Part shown: positions 15,712 through 22,819 of the stretch, one piece after another
How the letters are laid out: each line of letters starts with the position of its first letter
How positions within the stretch are numbered: the first letter of the stretch is position 1
DNA from: a virus
Strand: one strand, 5' to 3'
Virus record (IMG/VR): IMGVR_UViG_3300040751_000051
Coordinates: 1 to 22,819 of that record
Length of the DNA: 22,819 nucleotides
The notes under the pieces: model-generated
What the model was told of the DNA's origin: nothing
The model's database searches: none
The model's input: only the letters and a program-made list of their open reading frames with translations
Program-made: the position numbers and the translations under genes

Positions 15712-17745
15712 CTAGACCCTTGGTAGGTTAGTCGATACATTCACACCAGATGCCATTTGCTGTGCGCGTAGCTCACGTTCAAATGCAAGCTCCTGTTGAC
15801 GCAGTTGCAACTCAGCCGCCATTTGCTCACGCTTGAAGGCAAACTCCATCTGCATCTTCTCTTTTTGAAGTTGAAGATCTTGAGCCGCTTTCTGTTGAGC
15901 CATTTGCATTTCCGCCTGCATCTTCTGCATTTCAGCCTGCACTTTAGGATCAACTTGAGGCTGTTGTGGCTGTGGCGGAGGCGCGTTGCGCGGATCCATC
16001 CAAAACTCATTAACATCTTTGAATCCAGACAGCTCAGTGATTTTTGCAAGCGTGTTGCGATATTGCACTGGGCTTACAATCATATTGTTTGGCCCAAGTG
16101 CCGCAATGATCTGCTCTTGTCGCGTAGCGATCTGGAACAATGTTGCAAGCTGTTGTTCACGCTGACCGGTGCCAAGGCCGACATTGATCTGCACATCATA
16201 AGACGTTGCCCACTGGCGCGGATCCATCGGAACAAACTGATTACGCAGGCGTACAATCTTCGGCTTGTTCTGGTACTTCGTAACCAGATGCAAGATGCCA
16301 CGGAACAAATCCTTAACACCTGTTTCTGCGAATACACGCGCAATCATTTCGATCTTGCCTTGCGATGCGGCTTGCATGGCGGCAACGGCAGTTGCGGTTG
16401 TCGATTGCAGTGCGTTAGCATCTAAGCCCATCGACTGACGGCTTACGCCAGTGCGCTGTTCCTTCATCCGATCCATATATTCAAGAGCTGGGAACACCGC
16501 GCCTGATACCTCTGGAACCTGCAATGGCTGAACCATGTTTGGAGCGCGTGTGCGGATAATGCCAGCAGGACGATTAGTCAGAAGGTCATCAAGATTGACC
16601 TGACCTTCAACTGCAATCACACGCGCATTGTTTGCGTTGTAGATGTTGTCCAACAACTGACGCATCAGTGTTGACTTGATCAACTGAACATCCATCACAA
16701 GTTCTGCGACCGAGCGACCGATTGCACGATGCGGCATTAGAATTGGCGAAAGAATGGCAAATGGGACATAGTCACATTCTTCATTTTCTATGATATGATA
16801 GCCAGTCCCAATAGCAAGAACGCGGCGCAACTCAGCAACACCATCGCCGTCATAATCAGCTTTGATGTAGCTTTCAGTAACCATGACATCGCGCATGGCT
16901 GGGTCTTTGCTGTCATCCTCAGATCCGCTTTCAAGATCTTCGAACCGAGTTGTTCTTTCGTCCGACGTGTCAAGGTCTGTGTAACCTGCATATTGCATCA
17001 CCTCATCTTTGTCGTAACCCATACTAACCAGATCGCTAACAGTCATCGTCGTGCGGTGCGAAACAAAGTCGGCATCTTTGAGAGACTTCGCACGCTTGCT
17101 GATCAAAAACTCTTCTGGCGGCACATTCTCAACATTGATGCGACCGCTTGTTTTGGTGCGGCGCAGTTTCACATTGTAGGCAATCGGAGGCGGCATGACC
17201 TGACCATCAGGCATTAGCTGAGGCTCACCCATAACAATCTCTTCTTGCTCAGCAACCTCAACGTCGTCGTCGATGATCAGGGCTGTCATCTCATTTTCGT
17301 TTAGCCCTTCATACTCCTCATACTCAATATCGACGATTTCATCCCAGTTATATTTGACAACGCCGACCTTGAATAGAAGCGCGTCCTTAAACCAGTTGTG
17401 CATGATTGCAAAACCTGAGTTGTCAGTATTGATAACCCAGTTGACGTAGTCACTTGCCTGTTCAGCTACCTGCACATCTTCAGGGCCATTAGGCATAAAG
17501 CGCACATAGTCTTCCGACTGCGTGAAGATACGCATCAGGTTAGGCATGATCGTCTCAATGGTGTCAGAGACTTCGGTCGCAATTACTTGGGAGCGGTCTG
17601 GCTGTTCATTGCCAAACGGCTCACCAAGGTAGTAGTCCATCGCGTCAATACGATCCTGACTAAACTCAGTGTCATAGTAACCAAGTGCCTGCTCAATCTC
17701 AGTGCGCAGGATAGATTGAAATTCAATGTCAGTTAATTTCGCCAT
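15712..17745 (-). CDS. Portal protein
   Basis: A 677-residue portal, which forms the dodecameric DNA channel at one capsid vertex. The N-terminal region has LTDIEFQSILRTEIEQALGY, DAMDYYLGEPFG and VSDTIETIMPNLMRIFTQSE, followed by FMPNGPEDVQVAEQASDYVN and HNWFKDALLFKVGVVKYNW: the series I know from P22/SU10-like portals. A helical stem (AIGRSVAELVMDVQLIKSTL, MRQLLDNIYNANNARVIAVE) follows. The C-terminal about 90 residues are Gln/Met/Lys-rich coiled coil (EMQKMQAEMQMAQQKAAQ), a barrel-like extension. I chose ATG 17745 over the in-frame TTG at 17760 because GTGGAG lies seven bases before it. The start overlaps the zinc-ribbon gene by 17 bases. Confidence 0.9.
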   Translation of the reverse strand: MAKLTDIEFQSILRTEIEQALGYYDTEFSQDRIDAMDYYLGEPFGNEQPDRSQVIATEVSDTIETIMPNLMRIFTQSEDYVRFMPNGPEDVQVAEQASDYVNWVINTDNSGFAIMHNWFKDALLFKVGVVKYNWDEIVDIEYEEYEGLNENEMTALIIDDDVEVAEQEEIVMGEPQLMPDGQVMPPPIAYNVKLRRTKTSGRINVENVPPEEFLISKRAKSLKDADFVSHRTTMTVSDLVSMGYDKDEVMQYAGYTDLDTSDERTTRFEDLESGSEDDSKDPAMRDVMVTESYIKADYDGDGVAELRRVLAIGTGYHIIENEECDYVPFAILSPILMPHRAIGRSVAELVMDVQLIKSTLMRQLLDNIYNANNARVIAVEGQVNLDDLLTNRPAGIIRTRAPNMVQPLQVPEVSGAVFPALEYMDRMKEQRTGVSRQSMGLDANALQSTTATAVAAMQAASQGKIEMIARVFAETGVKDLFRGILHLVTKYQNKPKIVRLRNQFVPMDPRQWATSYDVQINVGLGTGQREQQLATLFQIATRQEQIIAALGPNNMIVSPVQYRNTLAKITELSGFKDVNEFWMDPRNAPPPQPQQPQVDPKVQAEMQKMQAEMQMAQQKAAQDLQLQKEKMQMEFAFKREQMAAELQLRQQELAFERELRAQQMASGVNVSTNLPRV

Positions 17746-17911
17746 CAATCGGCTCCACAATAATTTTCTTGGAAGAAACCTTCTTAGCCTTTTTTGTCAC
17801 AGTTTCCACGGCTTGTATAGTCTCTTGCTCAACCACTAGGGGTTGGCGGCAGGACTTACAGGCACCTAAATATCCGTTTGGGTTGGGATAGCCACAGTTG
17901 TTACAGTTCAT
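17729..17911 (-). CDS. Small zinc-ribbon protein
   Basis: A 60-residue protein. Four cysteines in CxxC pairs (C3-x2-C6 and C18-x2-C21, in NCNNCGYPNPNGYLGACKSC) form a rubredoxin/zinc-ribbon-like knuckle. The C-terminal half is Lys/Val-rich and disordered-looking (VTKKAKKVSSKKIIVEP). Zinc ribbons of this size in phages usually bind nucleic acid or other proteins; none is catalytic. The ATG overlaps the stop of the 51-residue gene as ATGA and its 3' end overlaps the portal gene by 17 bases, so translation is coupled to the portal. Role unknown; it may be a packaging or assembly cofactor. Confidence 0.75.
   Translation of the reverse strand: MNCNNCGYPNPNGYLGACKSCRQPLVVEQETIQAVETVTKKAKKVSSKKIIVEPIDGEIN
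17753..17758 (-). promoter_or_regulatory. Portal ribosome binding site GTGGAG
   Basis: GTGGAG on the minus strand is seven bases before ATG 17745, inside the end of the zinc-ribbon gene. It decides the portal start in favour of this ATG over the upstream TTG at 17760. Confidence 0.6.
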
Positions 17912-18342: not shown

Positions 18343-18618
18343 TTACCATTTAACTTTGTCTGCCCAGTAAGCGGCTGACATTTTTCCTTTAGCGATGTTC
18401 TGCGCATGACGCGCCTTGAACGACTTGCGGCGATTAGCATAAGACTTGCTTTCGCCTTTTTTCTTTGGTGATCCAGATACACCTTGCTGACCAAAACGGA
18501 TCAGGCGGATCTTGTCGCCCTCTTTTGCCAAAACGGCGTGGCTCTTCTTCGGATGGTTGGGGGTGCGCTTCGGCTTGTTGTAGCCGGCAAAGCGTTCGCC
18601 GCGATAAACTACAGCCAT
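18343..18618 (-). CDS. Conserved basic phage protein (DUF6321-like by memory)
   Basis: A 91-residue strongly basic protein. The core KIRLIRFGQQGVSGSPKKKG, then ESKSYANRRKSFKARHAQNI and AKGKMSAAYWADKVKW is one of the better conserved small-protein signatures in marine phages; I recall it as DUF6321 but am not certain of the number. The N-terminus has RGERFAGYNKPKRTPNHPKK and a short strand SHAVLAKEGDKIRLI. It begins at the stop of the 919-residue gene (TGATG). Arg/Lys content and fixed aromatic ending suggest nucleic-acid or capsid-interior binding. Function unknown. Confidence 0.78.
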   Translation of the reverse strand: MAVVYRGERFAGYNKPKRTPNHPKKSHAVLAKEGDKIRLIRFGQQGVSGSPKKKGESKSYANRRKSFKARHAQNIAKGKMSAAYWADKVKW

Positions 18619-21377
18619 CAGTAAATCACTCCGTTATTCGAATCTTCTTTCAAAAGCTCTTCGATCATCTGCGCCGTAACAATGGGTGCCGCAATGCTTG
18701 CGCCTATGTTCGCAAGGTGTCCTAGTCGCGGATCAAAACGTGCAGTTGGTGATCTTACATTTGAAGAATACATATCAACCCTTGTGGTTGATGGGAGACG
18801 ACGTTGAGCTTTTTCGTTTTCAGTCAAGTTTCTCCAAATAGGCCCAAAGTCAACAACATCAGAAAACTCCAAACTTGGAATCCCAGCCTCAGATGCTAGT
18901 GCGGCGACATCGTCAGTCGTGATATATTTTTCATCACCCTTCGCTATGGTGCTGGGCCACCTCTCACCAAATATATCATAAAGGTCTTCTAGGTTCATAT
19001 TGAAAACCTGACCGCCTGCGCCGGCTCTTTCTACTGGCGTTCTTTTTGTTAGGCGATCCCAGTTTTCACCATGAGCAAAAACAGTGCCACCCAAGTTTTC
19101 TTTTAGAAGTAGTGGGTATATATTTTCGCCATACATCTCAGCAATTTTAGGGTTGCTTGAAGTCCATATAGCCTGCGTTATTTCGTCGATAGTTTTGTCT
19201 GTCCCACTGTATCTAACATCTTCAGGATCAAAGCCCATCTCTCCTGCTCTTTTCATGCGGCTTTCAACGTCAAGCGGCAGATCGTAGTTTTTATCAAGAT
19301 AGGTTTTGTCTGCGTATCGCAACATCGCATCCGTTACTTCAGATCCACGATCATTTTCCAGCAACCTTAAAACATCCCTTGCGATCCGTTCTTGTTGGTT
19401 CTTTGGTGTTGGATAACGACGATCAAGCGTAGATGGTGTTACGCGCACAGGATCAAAAACGCTTGTCACAGGGCCGCCGCCTTTTTGCCTAGCGACATAG
19501 CCCTGATAACCATAGACAGGCAGTAAGCTCTCAAAAGTATTCAGGGCCGCATCATTTCGGTTGATGTTTGTGTCTGGATAACGCGCACCAGCAAGCGTCA
19601 AAAGCCCAAGAGGGTCTTCGTCAAAATTATAGAGATTAAGCCCTTCGCCTGTCGCCCTGTATGGTTGGCCTATGAAACTCTCAGGCTGAATAGCCCCCAT
19701 CTCATCCGGCCCATAAAACATTTGACGCGGTGGTGCCGGTGCATCTTCGCGTGTAAGCCTTTGAGCCTCTTCGCCGCGTGCACGACTTGTGCCCTGATAT
19801 GCAGGATCAACAACAGACAAGCCTTGTGGCCCTATGTGTAAGCCGTAGAATGGTTGAGCCTCACGCTGAGACATATTTAATTCACGCAGATATGGCGGAA
19901 TAAAATAAGGATCATTAAAATTTGGGCTGACATATTCTGGCGGCAATAAAACCGATCTTTGTTCAGCGTATTGCAAGTCATCATACAGGCCCTTCTTTTG
20001 AGCTTGCAGTTCATCAATTTTTGCTTGATCTGGCTTCTGCCCCATGCGGCTTGCTTGAGAGCGTATATCTTTTATTTCGTTGTCGATAACGCGAATGTCT
20101 TTGAACATTGGTGCGTTGGCTGTGCCGTAATTCAGCCAGCTATTTTGGCCTCTTGTCTCCGATGCCATCGCAAGACGCGCAAGTGGTGAGTACATTTGAG
20201 AATGAGATAAAAACGCAATCTCTTCGCCTTTTGGCTGGAAGCTGTTGCCGCCGGCGGCATGACCAAACATATCATGCACAGCCCTAAACATTTCATTTTC
20301 AGTTAGGCCGGTATCTGGATCAATATTCTTTAGATACTCATGTTCGTCGCCGCCGCGAAAGACATTCAGGTTTCTATTCTCTGTTACATCCCTGAACGCA
20401 TCTGATGCTTTACCATATTCAAGCTCACCTTGGTGAAATGTAAATGTCATGTCTGACGGCATCATTTGGTTAAACTGATCTTTAGTCTCACGCGCCATCG
20501 CTTCGTAAGATGCCTGCACAAGATCATCGTAATTTTCTGCACCAGACTGCGCAACAACGTCAGGCATCTCACGCTTGTAAGCATCAAAAACAAGAGCCTT
20601 GTAGTCGTCGTCACCCATAACAGCAAGCTCATAGACGCGGCCTATGGCGGCCTGTTTTACGATGTTGCTTTCAACTGACGCTGGGTCTATTCGGTTGTAC
20701 GGAACGCCAAAGTTATCTTGCGTGTATTTGTCTGCAAGCTGGTACGCGACATTAAGTTTGTCGTCGGCTAGAATTTCTTTGACTTCTGCATCCGTGAGAT
20801 TTGTGCCACTTGCCCCCTCAACGACCTGACGCTCTCCTGATACGGAGGCAGTGGATCCTCTCCCAGCTCCTTGGTCATCCGCTCTTGCAGAGCCGCCTCT
20901 AACTTTGAGTATGCCTGCTTCGTCGTCTCTTTCGACTGTCCATTTTGGTGTTTCACCTGTTTCACTCCATCTCTTTAAGTCACTAAAAACATCTAGGGCT
21001 TCCATCCCCTTTAGAATTTTATTGCCCACACTCACTACAACAATAGGATCAATAATACCAGAAATAAACCTGCCTGTGTTCTCCGCCACAGAGCCAGTCC
21101 TTTCCATTGACGGCGCAAATTTTGAGTAAAGATCAATGAGCCAATCACTGCCGCCCACCGGCTTCTCAATGGGCCTGCCGGTTATAGCTTGGTTAATTGG
21201 CGACGCAATCAGGTTCATAAGATCAACTGGCGCACCAACAAGATCGAATGGTGCGTAAGAAAGCCCACGCGCAAATGACATTGGGTCTTCTTTGACAGCC
21301 GTACCCACCTTGATTGCAGGATCAGAAACTATCAGTGATGGGTCTGCAAGATACTCACCTAAATATCTACTAGCCAT
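18618..21377 (-). CDS. Multidomain polyvalent-type protein with C-terminal ADP-ribosyltransferase-like domain
   Basis: A 919-residue protein. Residues 1-125 (SFARGLSYAPFDLVGAPVDL, MNLIASPINQAI) resemble the N-terminus of phage internal proteins. At 363-414 lies FRAVHDMFGHAAGGNSF ... YSPLARLAMASETRGQNSW, a block I know from large phage proteins of unknown function; H368, H373 and E407 could bind metal. Residues about 424-470 are a coiled coil, followed by YAEQRSVLLPPEYV. At 570-650 is LYNFDEDPLGLL ... YGYQGYVARQKGGG ... FDPVRV. The end (703-892) fits the ADP-ribosyltransferase domain of polyvalent proteins: GFDPEDVRYSGTDKTIDE, WTSSNPKIAEMYG, and YSSNVRSPTARFDP. Such proteins are thought to be injected with phage DNA to modify host targets. 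Both ends overlap neighbours (TAATG, TGATG). Domain calls are by motif memory. Confidence 0.75.
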   Translation of the reverse strand: MASRYLGEYLADPSLIVSDPAIKVGTAVKEDPMSFARGLSYAPFDLVGAPVDLMNLIASPINQAITGRPIEKPVGGSDWLIDLYSKFAPSMERTGSVAENTGRFISGIIDPIVVVSVGNKILKGMEALDVFSDLKRWSETGETPKWTVERDDEAGILKVRGGSARADDQGAGRGSTASVSGERQVVEGASGTNLTDAEVKEILADDKLNVAYQLADKYTQDNFGVPYNRIDPASVESNIVKQAAIGRVYELAVMGDDDYKALVFDAYKREMPDVVAQSGAENYDDLVQASYEAMARETKDQFNQMMPSDMTFTFHQGELEYGKASDAFRDVTENRNLNVFRGGDEHEYLKNIDPDTGLTENEMFRAVHDMFGHAAGGNSFQPKGEEIAFLSHSQMYSPLARLAMASETRGQNSWLNYGTANAPMFKDIRVIDNEIKDIRSQASRMGQKPDQAKIDELQAQKKGLYDDLQYAEQRSVLLPPEYVSPNFNDPYFIPPYLRELNMSQREAQPFYGLHIGPQGLSVVDPAYQGTSRARGEEAQRLTREDAPAPPRQMFYGPDEMGAIQPESFIGQPYRATGEGLNLYNFDEDPLGLLTLAGARYPDTNINRNDAALNTFESLLPVYGYQGYVARQKGGGPVTSVFDPVRVTPSTLDRRYPTPKNQQERIARDVLRLLENDRGSEVTDAMLRYADKTYLDKNYDLPLDVESRMKRAGEMGFDPEDVRYSGTDKTIDEITQAIWTSSNPKIAEMYGENIYPLLLKENLGGTVFAHGENWDRLTKRTPVERAGAGGQVFNMNLEDLYDIFGERWPSTIAKGDEKYITTDDVAALASEAGIPSLEFSDVVDFGPIWRNLTENEKAQRRLPSTTRVDMYSSNVRSPTARFDPRLGHLANIGASIAAPIVTAQMIEELLKEDSNNGVIY

Positions 21378-21499: not shown

Positions 21500-21732
21500 C
21501 AGCAATCTCCGTGGACGCCGTCGTCAGTCATGCGGATACTGCGCACGATTTCCATAAACTCATCTGCGTCAATGCCAGCCTCTGACGCGCAGTAGCCAGC
21601 CGCCATCAGGCAAGTATACATCAGATCTTCGAAATTAGAACCAGAATTTTCAAGTTCCATCATCAGCATGATGATCTGCTTAAGATCGTCTAAATTTTCT
21701 TCGCCTAACGTGACAAACTCTGTCTCACTCAT
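21499..21732 (-). CDS. Small acidic protein next to the terminase
   Basis: A 77-residue acidic helical protein (MSETEFVTLGEENLDDLKQI, then LMYTCLMAAGYCASEAGIDA). I chose ATG 21732 rather than the in-frame GTG 14 codons upstream because it overlaps the terminase stop as ATGA and follows AAGGTGGA. No domain is recognised. The acid/hydrophobic helices suggest a small regulatory or binding protein, perhaps for the terminase or the following basic peptide. It is not an obvious small terminase subunit: no HTH is visible. Confidence 0.68.
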   Translation of the reverse strand: MSETEFVTLGEENLDDLKQIIMLMMELENSGSNFEDLMYTCLMAAGYCASEAGIDADEFMEIVRSIRMTDDGVHGDC

Positions 21733-22819
21733 ACAATCCACCTTGCTTTCGGATAATTGATCTGGTTGCTCCACTTAAACTTACTTCCGCTTCTAGCAAT
21801 GGAGGCGTTGCCAGCAAAAGTCAAACAAAACGCATCAGCCAAGTCAGGGCTATTCATGCCACGCTTTTTCATTTCGTCCTTGCTCTCAACCTTGAGCTTG
21901 CCATTGGAAGAAAACTTGAAGCGCGGCTTCGACAGGTCTGCAATCAACTCCTCTTGATCAGGTATCGTGCAGTCGCGGCCCTCAAACCATTCTTTTGCGC
22001 TGAACCACAACTCATCGCGCAGGCGAAAATACTTCTGTTTCATAGCTGAGCTTTCAGCTACGTTTATACCCCTAGCAGGTAGATCAAGCTCCTGAAGACG
22101 ATCCACCACCCCAGCACCAATGCCAATACTATCAACCAAAATTTCAAGCGGTCGTTCCGACCATCTGGTAGTTTCATATTCATTCAGGATAATCCCACAC
22201 AGTTCCATTAAGTCCTTATTACGCCACGTCTTGAGCGGCTCCACAACCACATTTCCTTTTCTCTTGCACAAGGCGGTTCTATCGGATCCAAAGCGTGCAA
22301 CGTCAAGCCCCCAAACAACAGGTGTCGTTTCCGCCGCCTCTTGGTCGCGCTTGGTGGCGCTCTCAATCAAGTGCAGTGGGATGACAACGTCGTCGTCGGC
22401 TTCGGGCCACTCACCCAGAACACGCACGCGATAGATGTTGCTCTCTTCGCCGTATTTCGTTTTCATGTCTTCAATAAAGTTGTCGGACACTTGCGTGCTG
22501 TCGCCAGACGCAACCTTCATTGTGAACCATCTCTCTCTCATCTTGTTGAACGCCTCATAAAAATAGCCAGACGTTCTTGTCGGGTTGCCGGTCATCACAG
22601 TCTTGGCACCCTCTGTAGACATGGCACCTTCACCAACCTCAAAGATCAGGTCATCAACACCAGATGCCTCATCAATCAAAAAGAGCATATTGGGACTGTG
22701 GAAGCCTTGCAGTGCCTCTGGCGTTTCGCGGCGTGCAGTTCTTGCAACTGCGAAGCTATCGGCTCCGACGACTTCGACCTTATCCGATTTCACCTGTATT
22801 ACCTCTTGGAAGCGTTTTG
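21729..22819 (-). CDS. terL: Terminase large subunit, C-terminal part (N-terminus beyond window)
   Basis: The visible 362 codons are the second half of a phage packaging motor; the frame is open to the right edge, so the Walker A half is outside. Walker B with catalytic Glu: MLFLIDEASG. Motif III: VMTGNPTR. The nuclease domain follows: VVWGLDVARFGSDRTAL (first Asp), ILVDSIGIGAGVVDRL (second Asp), and SPDLADAFCLTF (last Asp pair), in RNase H-like order. Terminases cut concatemeric DNA and drive it through the portal with ATP. The stop overlaps the next start (ATGA). All key residues of the visible part are intact. The upstream codons read KRFQEVIQVKSDKVEVVGAD, so no start should be placed at the GTG at 22793. 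Confidence 0.93.
   Translation of the reverse strand, partial: KRFQEVIQVKSDKVEVVGADSFAVARTARRETPEALQGFHSPNMLFLIDEASGVDDLIFEVGEGAMSTEGAKTVMTGNPTRTSGYFYEAFNKMRERWFTMKVASGDSTQVSDNFIEDMKTKYGEESNIYRVRVLGEWPEADDDVVIPLHLIESATKRDQEAAETTPVVWGLDVARFGSDRTALCKRKGNVVVEPLKTWRNKDLMELCGIILNEYETTRWSERPLEILVDSIGIGAGVVDRLQELDLPARGINVAESSAMKQKYFRLRDELWFSAKEWFEGRDCTIPDQEELIADLSKPRFKFSSNGKLKVESKDEMKKRGMNSPDLADAFCLTFAGNASIARSGSKFKWSNQINYPKARWIV

What the first reader, a model, noticed from the sequence alone, without database searches (positions are those of the whole stretch)
18702..19271. ADP-ribosyltransferase-like domain at the end of a 919-residue late phage protein
Residues 703-892 show the series expected of polyvalent-protein ADP-ribosyltransferases: GFD.... 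YSGT, a W-T-S-S-N-P strand with ..AEMYG, then a distal strand ending NVRSPTARFDP. Encoded between terminase and portal with other virion genes, the protein may be packaged and injected to modify host proteins early, as T4 Alt does. If so it is a self-contained takeover factor in a small-tailed marine-type phage. The N-terminus resembles internal virion proteins, which fits delivery.
Basis: partly seen in the sequence, partly recalled or inferred. Interest (0 to 1): 0.62.

Follow-up and report, generated by a model that had tools for sequence, protein, structure and literature searches.

The report
Modular phage protein with altered ADP-ribosyltransferase-like end
A small-tailed phage carries, between its DNA-packaging and portal genes, a swappable multi-part protein whose tail end belongs to a known phage family of protein-tagging enzymes, but with a key histidine changed to serine, so whether it still tags proteins is uncertain.

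Summary
The 919-aa ORF is intact and its C-terminus (about residues 656-890) belongs to the ART-PolyVal group of phage ADP-ribosyltransferases. The window protein has no direct Pfam hit, but 23 of 41 aligned homologues match PF18760 (best 3e-8), the AlphaFold model matches viral proteins named 'PolyVal ADP-Ribosyltransferase' (E 1.4e-4), and the best solved structure is the anti-CRISPR ART AcrIF11 (6kyf; E 0.055). Homologues often sit next to the terminase gene.

Two corrections. (1) The active site is non-canonical. Relatives read YHGT, aromatic, and an invariant Asp (28/28); the window reads YSGT, Trp738, Asp843. His-to-Ser arose at least twice on the tree and is shared with a 55%-identical copy in a near-identical phage. 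The T4 Alt analogy crosses ART clades (R-S-E versus H-Y-D). Activity is plausible but unproven. (2) The gene is a fusion in an accessory slot that holds no ORF of 85 aa or more in 44 of 54 related contigs. The ART module occurs alone in two relatives, the N-terminal 654 residues in another. That N-terminal part holds a widespread uncharacterised HDxxGH domain and, by fold, a second ART-like domain.

Packaging and injection are inferred from context only. New variant of a known kind.

The parts
18618..21377 (-). 919-aa modular (polyvalent-type) protein P0001
   Evidence: Open reading frame. ATG preceded by GAGGA and overlapping an upstream stop (TAATG); its stop overlaps the start of the 91-aa gene (TGATG).
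20811..21377 (-). N-terminal region, residues 1-189, of unknown function
   Evidence: No significant PHROG, Pfam or tblastn match; 60% identical with the rest of 6-654 in L079.
19908..20810 (-). helical HDxxGH domain (phrog_3170 type), about residues 190-490
   Evidence: phrog_3170 E 3.7e-21; 571 relatives in viral contigs; invariant H368, D369, G372, H373, E385, E386, H392, E407, TRGQN; model pLDDT 89.5.
20259..20276 (-). HDMFGH motif, residues 368-373
   Evidence: H, D, G, H invariant in 33 aligned sequences.
19416..19871 (-). second, divergent ART-like domain, about residues 503-654
   Evidence: Best PDB fold match of the model that contains it is AcrIF11 6kyf (prob 0.95, E 0.13), MbcT 6fkg at rank 7; invariant H514 in 18 sequences; hhalign with the C-terminal ART family in register but weak, E 0.014.
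18708..19412 (-). C-terminal ART-PolyVal-type module, about residues 656-890
   Evidence: Homologues match PF18760; AlphaFold model and fold matches; stands without the HDxxGH part in L008 and L078.
19200..19211 (-). motif I YSGT, residues 723-726; S724 replaces the usual His
   Evidence: His in 21/28 of the clade and 11/13 of the other aligned sequences; Ser in window, L088, L094, L095, L109.
19131..19166 (-). motif II WTSSNPKIAEMY, residues 738-749; W738 at the aromatic position
   Evidence: F 19, W 4, Y 3 of 28 in the clade.
18849..18851 (-). D843, the only invariant acid between motif II and the last strand in the clade
   Evidence: Asp in 28/28 clade members; follows strand 4 as the catalytic Asp of AcrIF11 does (PMC12421852).
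18729..18794 (-). last-strand motif PSTTRVDMYSSNVRSPTARFDP, residues 862-883; no Glu
   Evidence: Position 865 is V/I/T in the clade, Glu in 5 of the 13 other sequences.
18343..18618 (-). 91-aa conserved neighbour (phrog_7595) that marks the downstream edge of the slot
   Evidence: E 7.8e-40; conserved in SU10-like relatives.
21729..22793 (-). large terminase subunit, upstream edge of the slot
   Evidence: phrog_2 E 1.3e-33; conserved in relatives.
15712..17760 (-). portal protein
   Evidence: PF23899 SU10_portal E 1.4e-228.

Best explanation
The gene is accessory cargo of an SU10-like podophage: a polyvalent-type protein made by fusing two separable modules. Its C-terminus has an ADP-ribosyltransferase fold of the ART-PolyVal / AcrIF11-like (H-aromatic-D) kind, with S-W-D in place of H-F/Y-D. 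Most likely mechanism: the protein is made late, packaged with the DNA, delivered at infection, and its ART module binds NAD and acts on a host or defence protein. Shown here: family, fold, active-site substitution, modularity, slot. Inferred: packaging, delivery, NAD use, target. My own split: ART fold about 0.93; still catalytic about 0.45; virion-packaged about 0.55.
For: PF18760 is matched by 23/41 homologues, by L078 at 1.5e-6 and by Octadecabacter DB virus 2 gp6 at 7.7e-4, which aligns to the window protein. AlphaFold core pLDDT above 90; BFVD hits named PolyVal ADP-Ribosyltransferase E 1.4e-4 and ART-PolyVal-like E 1.9e-4; PDB rank 1 is AcrIF11, a proven ART whose residues are H-F-H-D (PMC12421852). 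D843 invariant in 28/28. Around about 40 homologues, 24 neighbour ORFs match a terminase family, 12 a virion structural family, 5 a portal family. L008 is 96-97% identical in DNA on both sides but carries only a 55%-identical ART module.
Against: No direct Pfam, NCBIfam or PDB sequence hit for the window domain. The strand-1 His, which H-Y-E/D ARTs use to bind NAD, is absent. The PDB fold match alone is not significant (E 0.055) and hhalign to AcrIF11 is weak (E 0.16). No virion or expression data.
Confidence: 0.6

Rival explanations
1. The C-terminal domain is a catalytically dead ART fold kept as a binding module, for a target protein, for NAD/ADP-ribose, or for docking in the capsid; enzymatic work is done by the HDxxGH domain or the middle ART-like domain.
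For: His to Ser in window and L088; loss of His at several separate places on the tree (6 changes); last-strand Glu absent; HDxxGH domain has many invariant polar residues.
Against: D843, G725, Y749 and the fold are kept over about one change per site between window and L088; loss of catalytic constraint would be expected to release D843 too.
Confidence: 0.3
2. Ordinary structural (internal virion) protein with no enzymatic role; the ART likeness is only ancestral.
For: Late operon position and overlaps with neighbouring genes.
Against: Not needed for assembly in relatives: no such ORF in 44 of 54 contigs with both slot edges; alternative occupants such as a LysM protein.
Confidence: 0.08
3. 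T4 Alt-type (R-S-E clade) injected ART that modifies RNA polymerase.
For: Context analogy only.
Against: No Arg in motif I and no ExE on the last strand; the published classification puts polyvalent ARTs in the H-Y-D clade (PMC5512222).
Confidence: 0.02

Closest known systems
ART-PolyVal (PF18760; Tox-ART-HYD2 clade; prototype Roseovarius Plymouth podovirus 1 vRNAP)
   Same: Homology through intermediates, YxGT and aromatic-TSxNPxxA..Y motifs, conserved Asp, multidomain protein, late gene context.
   Different: Strand-1 His replaced by Ser; the window protein itself scores no hit; fused to an HDxxGH domain, not to a virion RNA polymerase.
AcrIF11 anti-CRISPR ADP-ribosyltransferase (PDB 6kyf, 8dwq)
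   Same: Best PDB fold match for both models that hold ART-like regions; H-F-D type site with Asp just after strand 4, like the window's clade.
   Different: About 10% identity; free-standing small protein; has the His; known target Csy1 N250 (PMC12421852). No evidence of CRISPR targeting here.
T4 Alt
   Same: Idea of a head-packaged, injected ART.
   Different: R-S-E clade active site; no sequence relation detected.
phrog_3170 family (Bixzunavirus gp99, Gordonia phage Skog gp166)
   Same: Residues 255-423 match at 3.7e-21; Bixzunavirus and Skog genes align at 34-37%.
   Different: No ART module seen in those two proteins; function unknown.

Membership tests
ART-PolyVal (PF18760) | Profile match above the curated cut-off (31.2 bits) | tested here: not met
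   No hit for the window protein; L078 reaches 29.5 bits, E 1.5e-6; 23/41 relatives match at E up to 0.1, best 3e-8.
ART-PolyVal (PF18760) | ART fold | tested here: met
   AlphaFold model; viral fold match E 1.4e-4 to a named PolyVal ART; PDB rank 1 AcrIF11 though E 0.055.
ART-PolyVal (H-Y-D) | His in strand 1 | tested here: not met
   S724.
ART-PolyVal (H-Y-D) | Tyr (aromatic) in strand 2 | tested here: inconclusive
   W738; the clade has F/W/Y in 26 of 28.
ART-PolyVal (H-Y-D) | Asp in the late strand region | tested here: inconclusive
   D843 invariant in 28/28, but its place in the pocket could not be measured; D840 is the residue that hhalign pairs with AcrIF11's catalytic Asp.
ART-PolyVal | ADP-ribosyltransferase activity | not testable with these tools
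   Needs an NAD labelling assay.
Polyvalent proteins | Several unrelated globular domains in one phage protein encoded with late genes | tested here: met
   N-terminal region, HDxxGH domain, ART-like middle, ART end; between terminase and portal.
Polyvalent proteins | Packaged in the virion and injected | not testable with these tools
   Context only (PMC9503650).
T4 Alt / R-S-E ARTs | Arg in motif I and acidic ExE on the last strand | tested here: not met
   Motif I is YSGT; no ExE on the last strand.

The most novel reading that the evidence does not exclude
One phage cargo protein carries three enzyme-like parts: a metal-enzyme-like HDxxGH domain of a large uncharacterised family, a divergent middle ART, and a C-terminal ART whose Ser-Trp-Asp site has replaced His-aromatic-Asp and still uses NAD, perhaps with a different outcome (NADase, or an unusual target such as a defence complex). 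The slot between terminase and the 91-aa gene would be a defence-facing swap site.
Probability: 0.15. Interest if true: 0.65.

Novelty: new variant of a known kind. Interest (0 to 1): 0.42.

Why it matters
ARTs are reported in only about 3% of podoviruses (PMC9503650), and head-packaged effectors of small marine-type phages are little studied. The recurrent His-to-Ser change makes a sharp, testable question: is the strand-1 His dispensable in polyvalent ARTs, or are these dead folds kept for binding? The slot and the HDxxGH domain are also practical places to look for new counter-defence factors.

Tried and rejected
Direct Pfam, NCBIfam and PDB sequence searches with the window domain: nothing. 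My first idea that the clade is simply dead because position 865 is not Glu was dropped: the literature places an Asp, not Glu, in this family, and D843 is invariant; last-strand Glu occurs only in a different sub-clade. hhalign to AcrIF11 aligned only strand 4. N-terminus as internal virion protein: best hit a crAss-like virion protein at E 0.2 and a tape-measure PHROG at E 0.031 over 46 residues, neither usable. PDB profile hits at E near 1 were ignored as chance. HDxxGH domain as aromatic amino acid hydroxylase: phenylalanine hydroxylase appears only at rank 22, E 2.9; kept as a lead only. Single-sequence scans with P0001, with the L008 protein and with the HDxxGH region found almost only themselves and near copies.

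Full report
WHAT WAS CHECKED. The window is a 22.8-kb piece of an SU10-like podophage: portal PF23899 (E 1.4e-228) and major capsid PF17236 (2.5e-84), terminase large subunit phrog_2 and scaffold. The 919-aa ORF (18618-21377, minus strand) is open and is tied to its neighbours by TAATG and TGATG overlaps.

IS IT AN ART? The window protein alone hits nothing in Pfam, NCBIfam or the PDB by sequence. Intermediates settle it. tblastn finds Octadecabacter Antarctic DB virus 2 gp6 (E 7e-6), which matches PF18760 ART-PolyVal (E 7.7e-4). A module in the related contig L078, 35% identical to residues 658-909, matches PF18760 at 1.5e-6. A scan of viral contigs gave 151 relatives; of 41 aligned sequences 23 match PF18760 at E up to 0.1, best 3e-8. 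The AlphaFold model (mean pLDDT 78, core above 90) matches viral models named PolyVal ADP-Ribosyltransferase (E 1.4e-4) and ART-PolyVal-like (1.9e-4). Among solved structures the first hit is 6kyf, AcrIF11 (prob 0.89, E 0.055), a proven ADP-ribosyltransferase (PMC12421852). The PDB hit is not significant on its own; the converging lines are.

ACTIVE SITE. Polyvalent ARTs are described as H-Y-D (PMC5512222) and AcrIF11 as H-F-H-D (PMC12421852). In the window's 28-sequence clade motif I is His in 21, Ser in 5, Thr 1, Arg 1; the strand-2 position is F/W/Y in 26; D843 is Asp in all 28, G845 in 27, P862 in 28, S863 in 27. The window reads S724, W738, D843. The last-strand Glu of another sub-clade (position 865) is absent throughout the clade. 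On an IQ-TREE tree Ser arose at least twice (window+L088; L094/L095/L109), and His/non-His needs six changes. Ser is shared by window and L088, which are separated by about one change per site (0.54 + 0.47), so it is not a recent error. D843 follows strand 4, as the catalytic D115/D146 of AcrIF11 does, but hhalign pairs D840 with that residue (weak) and I had no model coordinates to decide.

MODULARITY. L008 is 96-97% identical to the window in DNA on both sides, yet between terminase and the 91-aa gene it encodes a 351-aa protein with a different short N-terminus and an ART module only 55% identical. L078 has the same two-part arrangement. L079 has only the part equivalent to residues 6-654 (60%), and in the next slot, between the 91-aa gene and the portal. 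The window gene is therefore best read as a fusion of two separately mobile genes. Of 54 related contigs with both edges of the first slot, 44 hold no ORF of 85 aa or more there and 10 hold varied cargo, including a LysM protein (E 1.7e-14) and families without a match. In other phages the ART family is often next to packaging genes: of 86 neighbour ORFs scanned, 24 match phrog_2 (terminase), 12 a virion structural family, 5 a portal family.

OTHER DOMAINS. Residues 255-423 match phrog_3170 (3.7e-21), found also in Mycobacterium and Gordonia phages. At least 571 viral-contig stretches encode relatives. The aligned family keeps HDxxGH, GEE, a later His, and ETRGQN invariant, which suggests a metal site (inference). 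The model of residues 190-656 is very good (pLDDT 89.5). Its best PDB match is again AcrIF11 (prob 0.95, E 0.13), with the NAD-degrading toxin MbcT at rank 7. Foldseek did not print the aligned range, but the first two thirds of the model are mainly helical and the strands lie in the last third, so a second ART-like domain at about 503-654 is the likely source; hhalign with the C-terminal family is weak but in register over strands 4-5 (E 0.014). The same pairing, HDxxGH plus an ART-like stretch with YHGT, is visible by eye in L170 and L224.

HOW IT PROBABLY WORKS. Shown: family, fold, substitution, slot and module shuffling. Inferred from context and published surveys (PMC5512222, PMC9503650): late expression, packaging, injection, action on a host or defence protein. 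The swapping in otherwise near-identical genomes fits an arms-race factor more than a structural part. Whether the S-W-D site still transfers ADP-ribose is open; I put it at about 0.45.

NOVELTY. ARTs in polyvalent proteins near terminase/portal are known. What is new is the altered motif I that recurs, the fusion with the HDxxGH domain and a probable second ART-like domain, and the cargo slot. By the membership rule I do not file it as a canonical H-Y-D ART-PolyVal enzyme, since the strand-1 His was tested and is absent; it is a variant of that kind.

Noticed in passing
window 19908-20810 (-): Widespread uncharacterised helical HDxxGH domain (phrog_3170 type) with invariant H368, H373, E385/E386, H392, E407, recalling a metal-binding enzyme; H-x4-H-x33-E spacing resembles non-haem iron hydroxylases but there is no significant fold match.
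   Followed up: partly
window 19416-19871 (-): Probable second, divergent ART-like domain in the same protein, with invariant H514.
   Followed up: partly
L008 1386-5001, L021, L034, L009, L032, L051: Slot between terminase and the 91-aa gene holds different cargo in different SU10-like phages: ART, a 450-458-aa unknown family (also found in the second slot), 131-136-aa unknown, LysM protein, and a protein with a HEMVHAAL motif.
   Followed up: partly
L006 2183-3484; L005 2168-3043: Mycobacterium phage Alice gp99 and Gordonia phage Skog gp166 are relatives of the HDxxGH domain; the Skog gene is annotated glycosylase without visible support.
   Followed up: no
L012 1823-2281: 152-aa Cys-containing ORF in the second slot that looks like a small HNH-type nuclease by eye; no Pfam match.
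   Followed up: no
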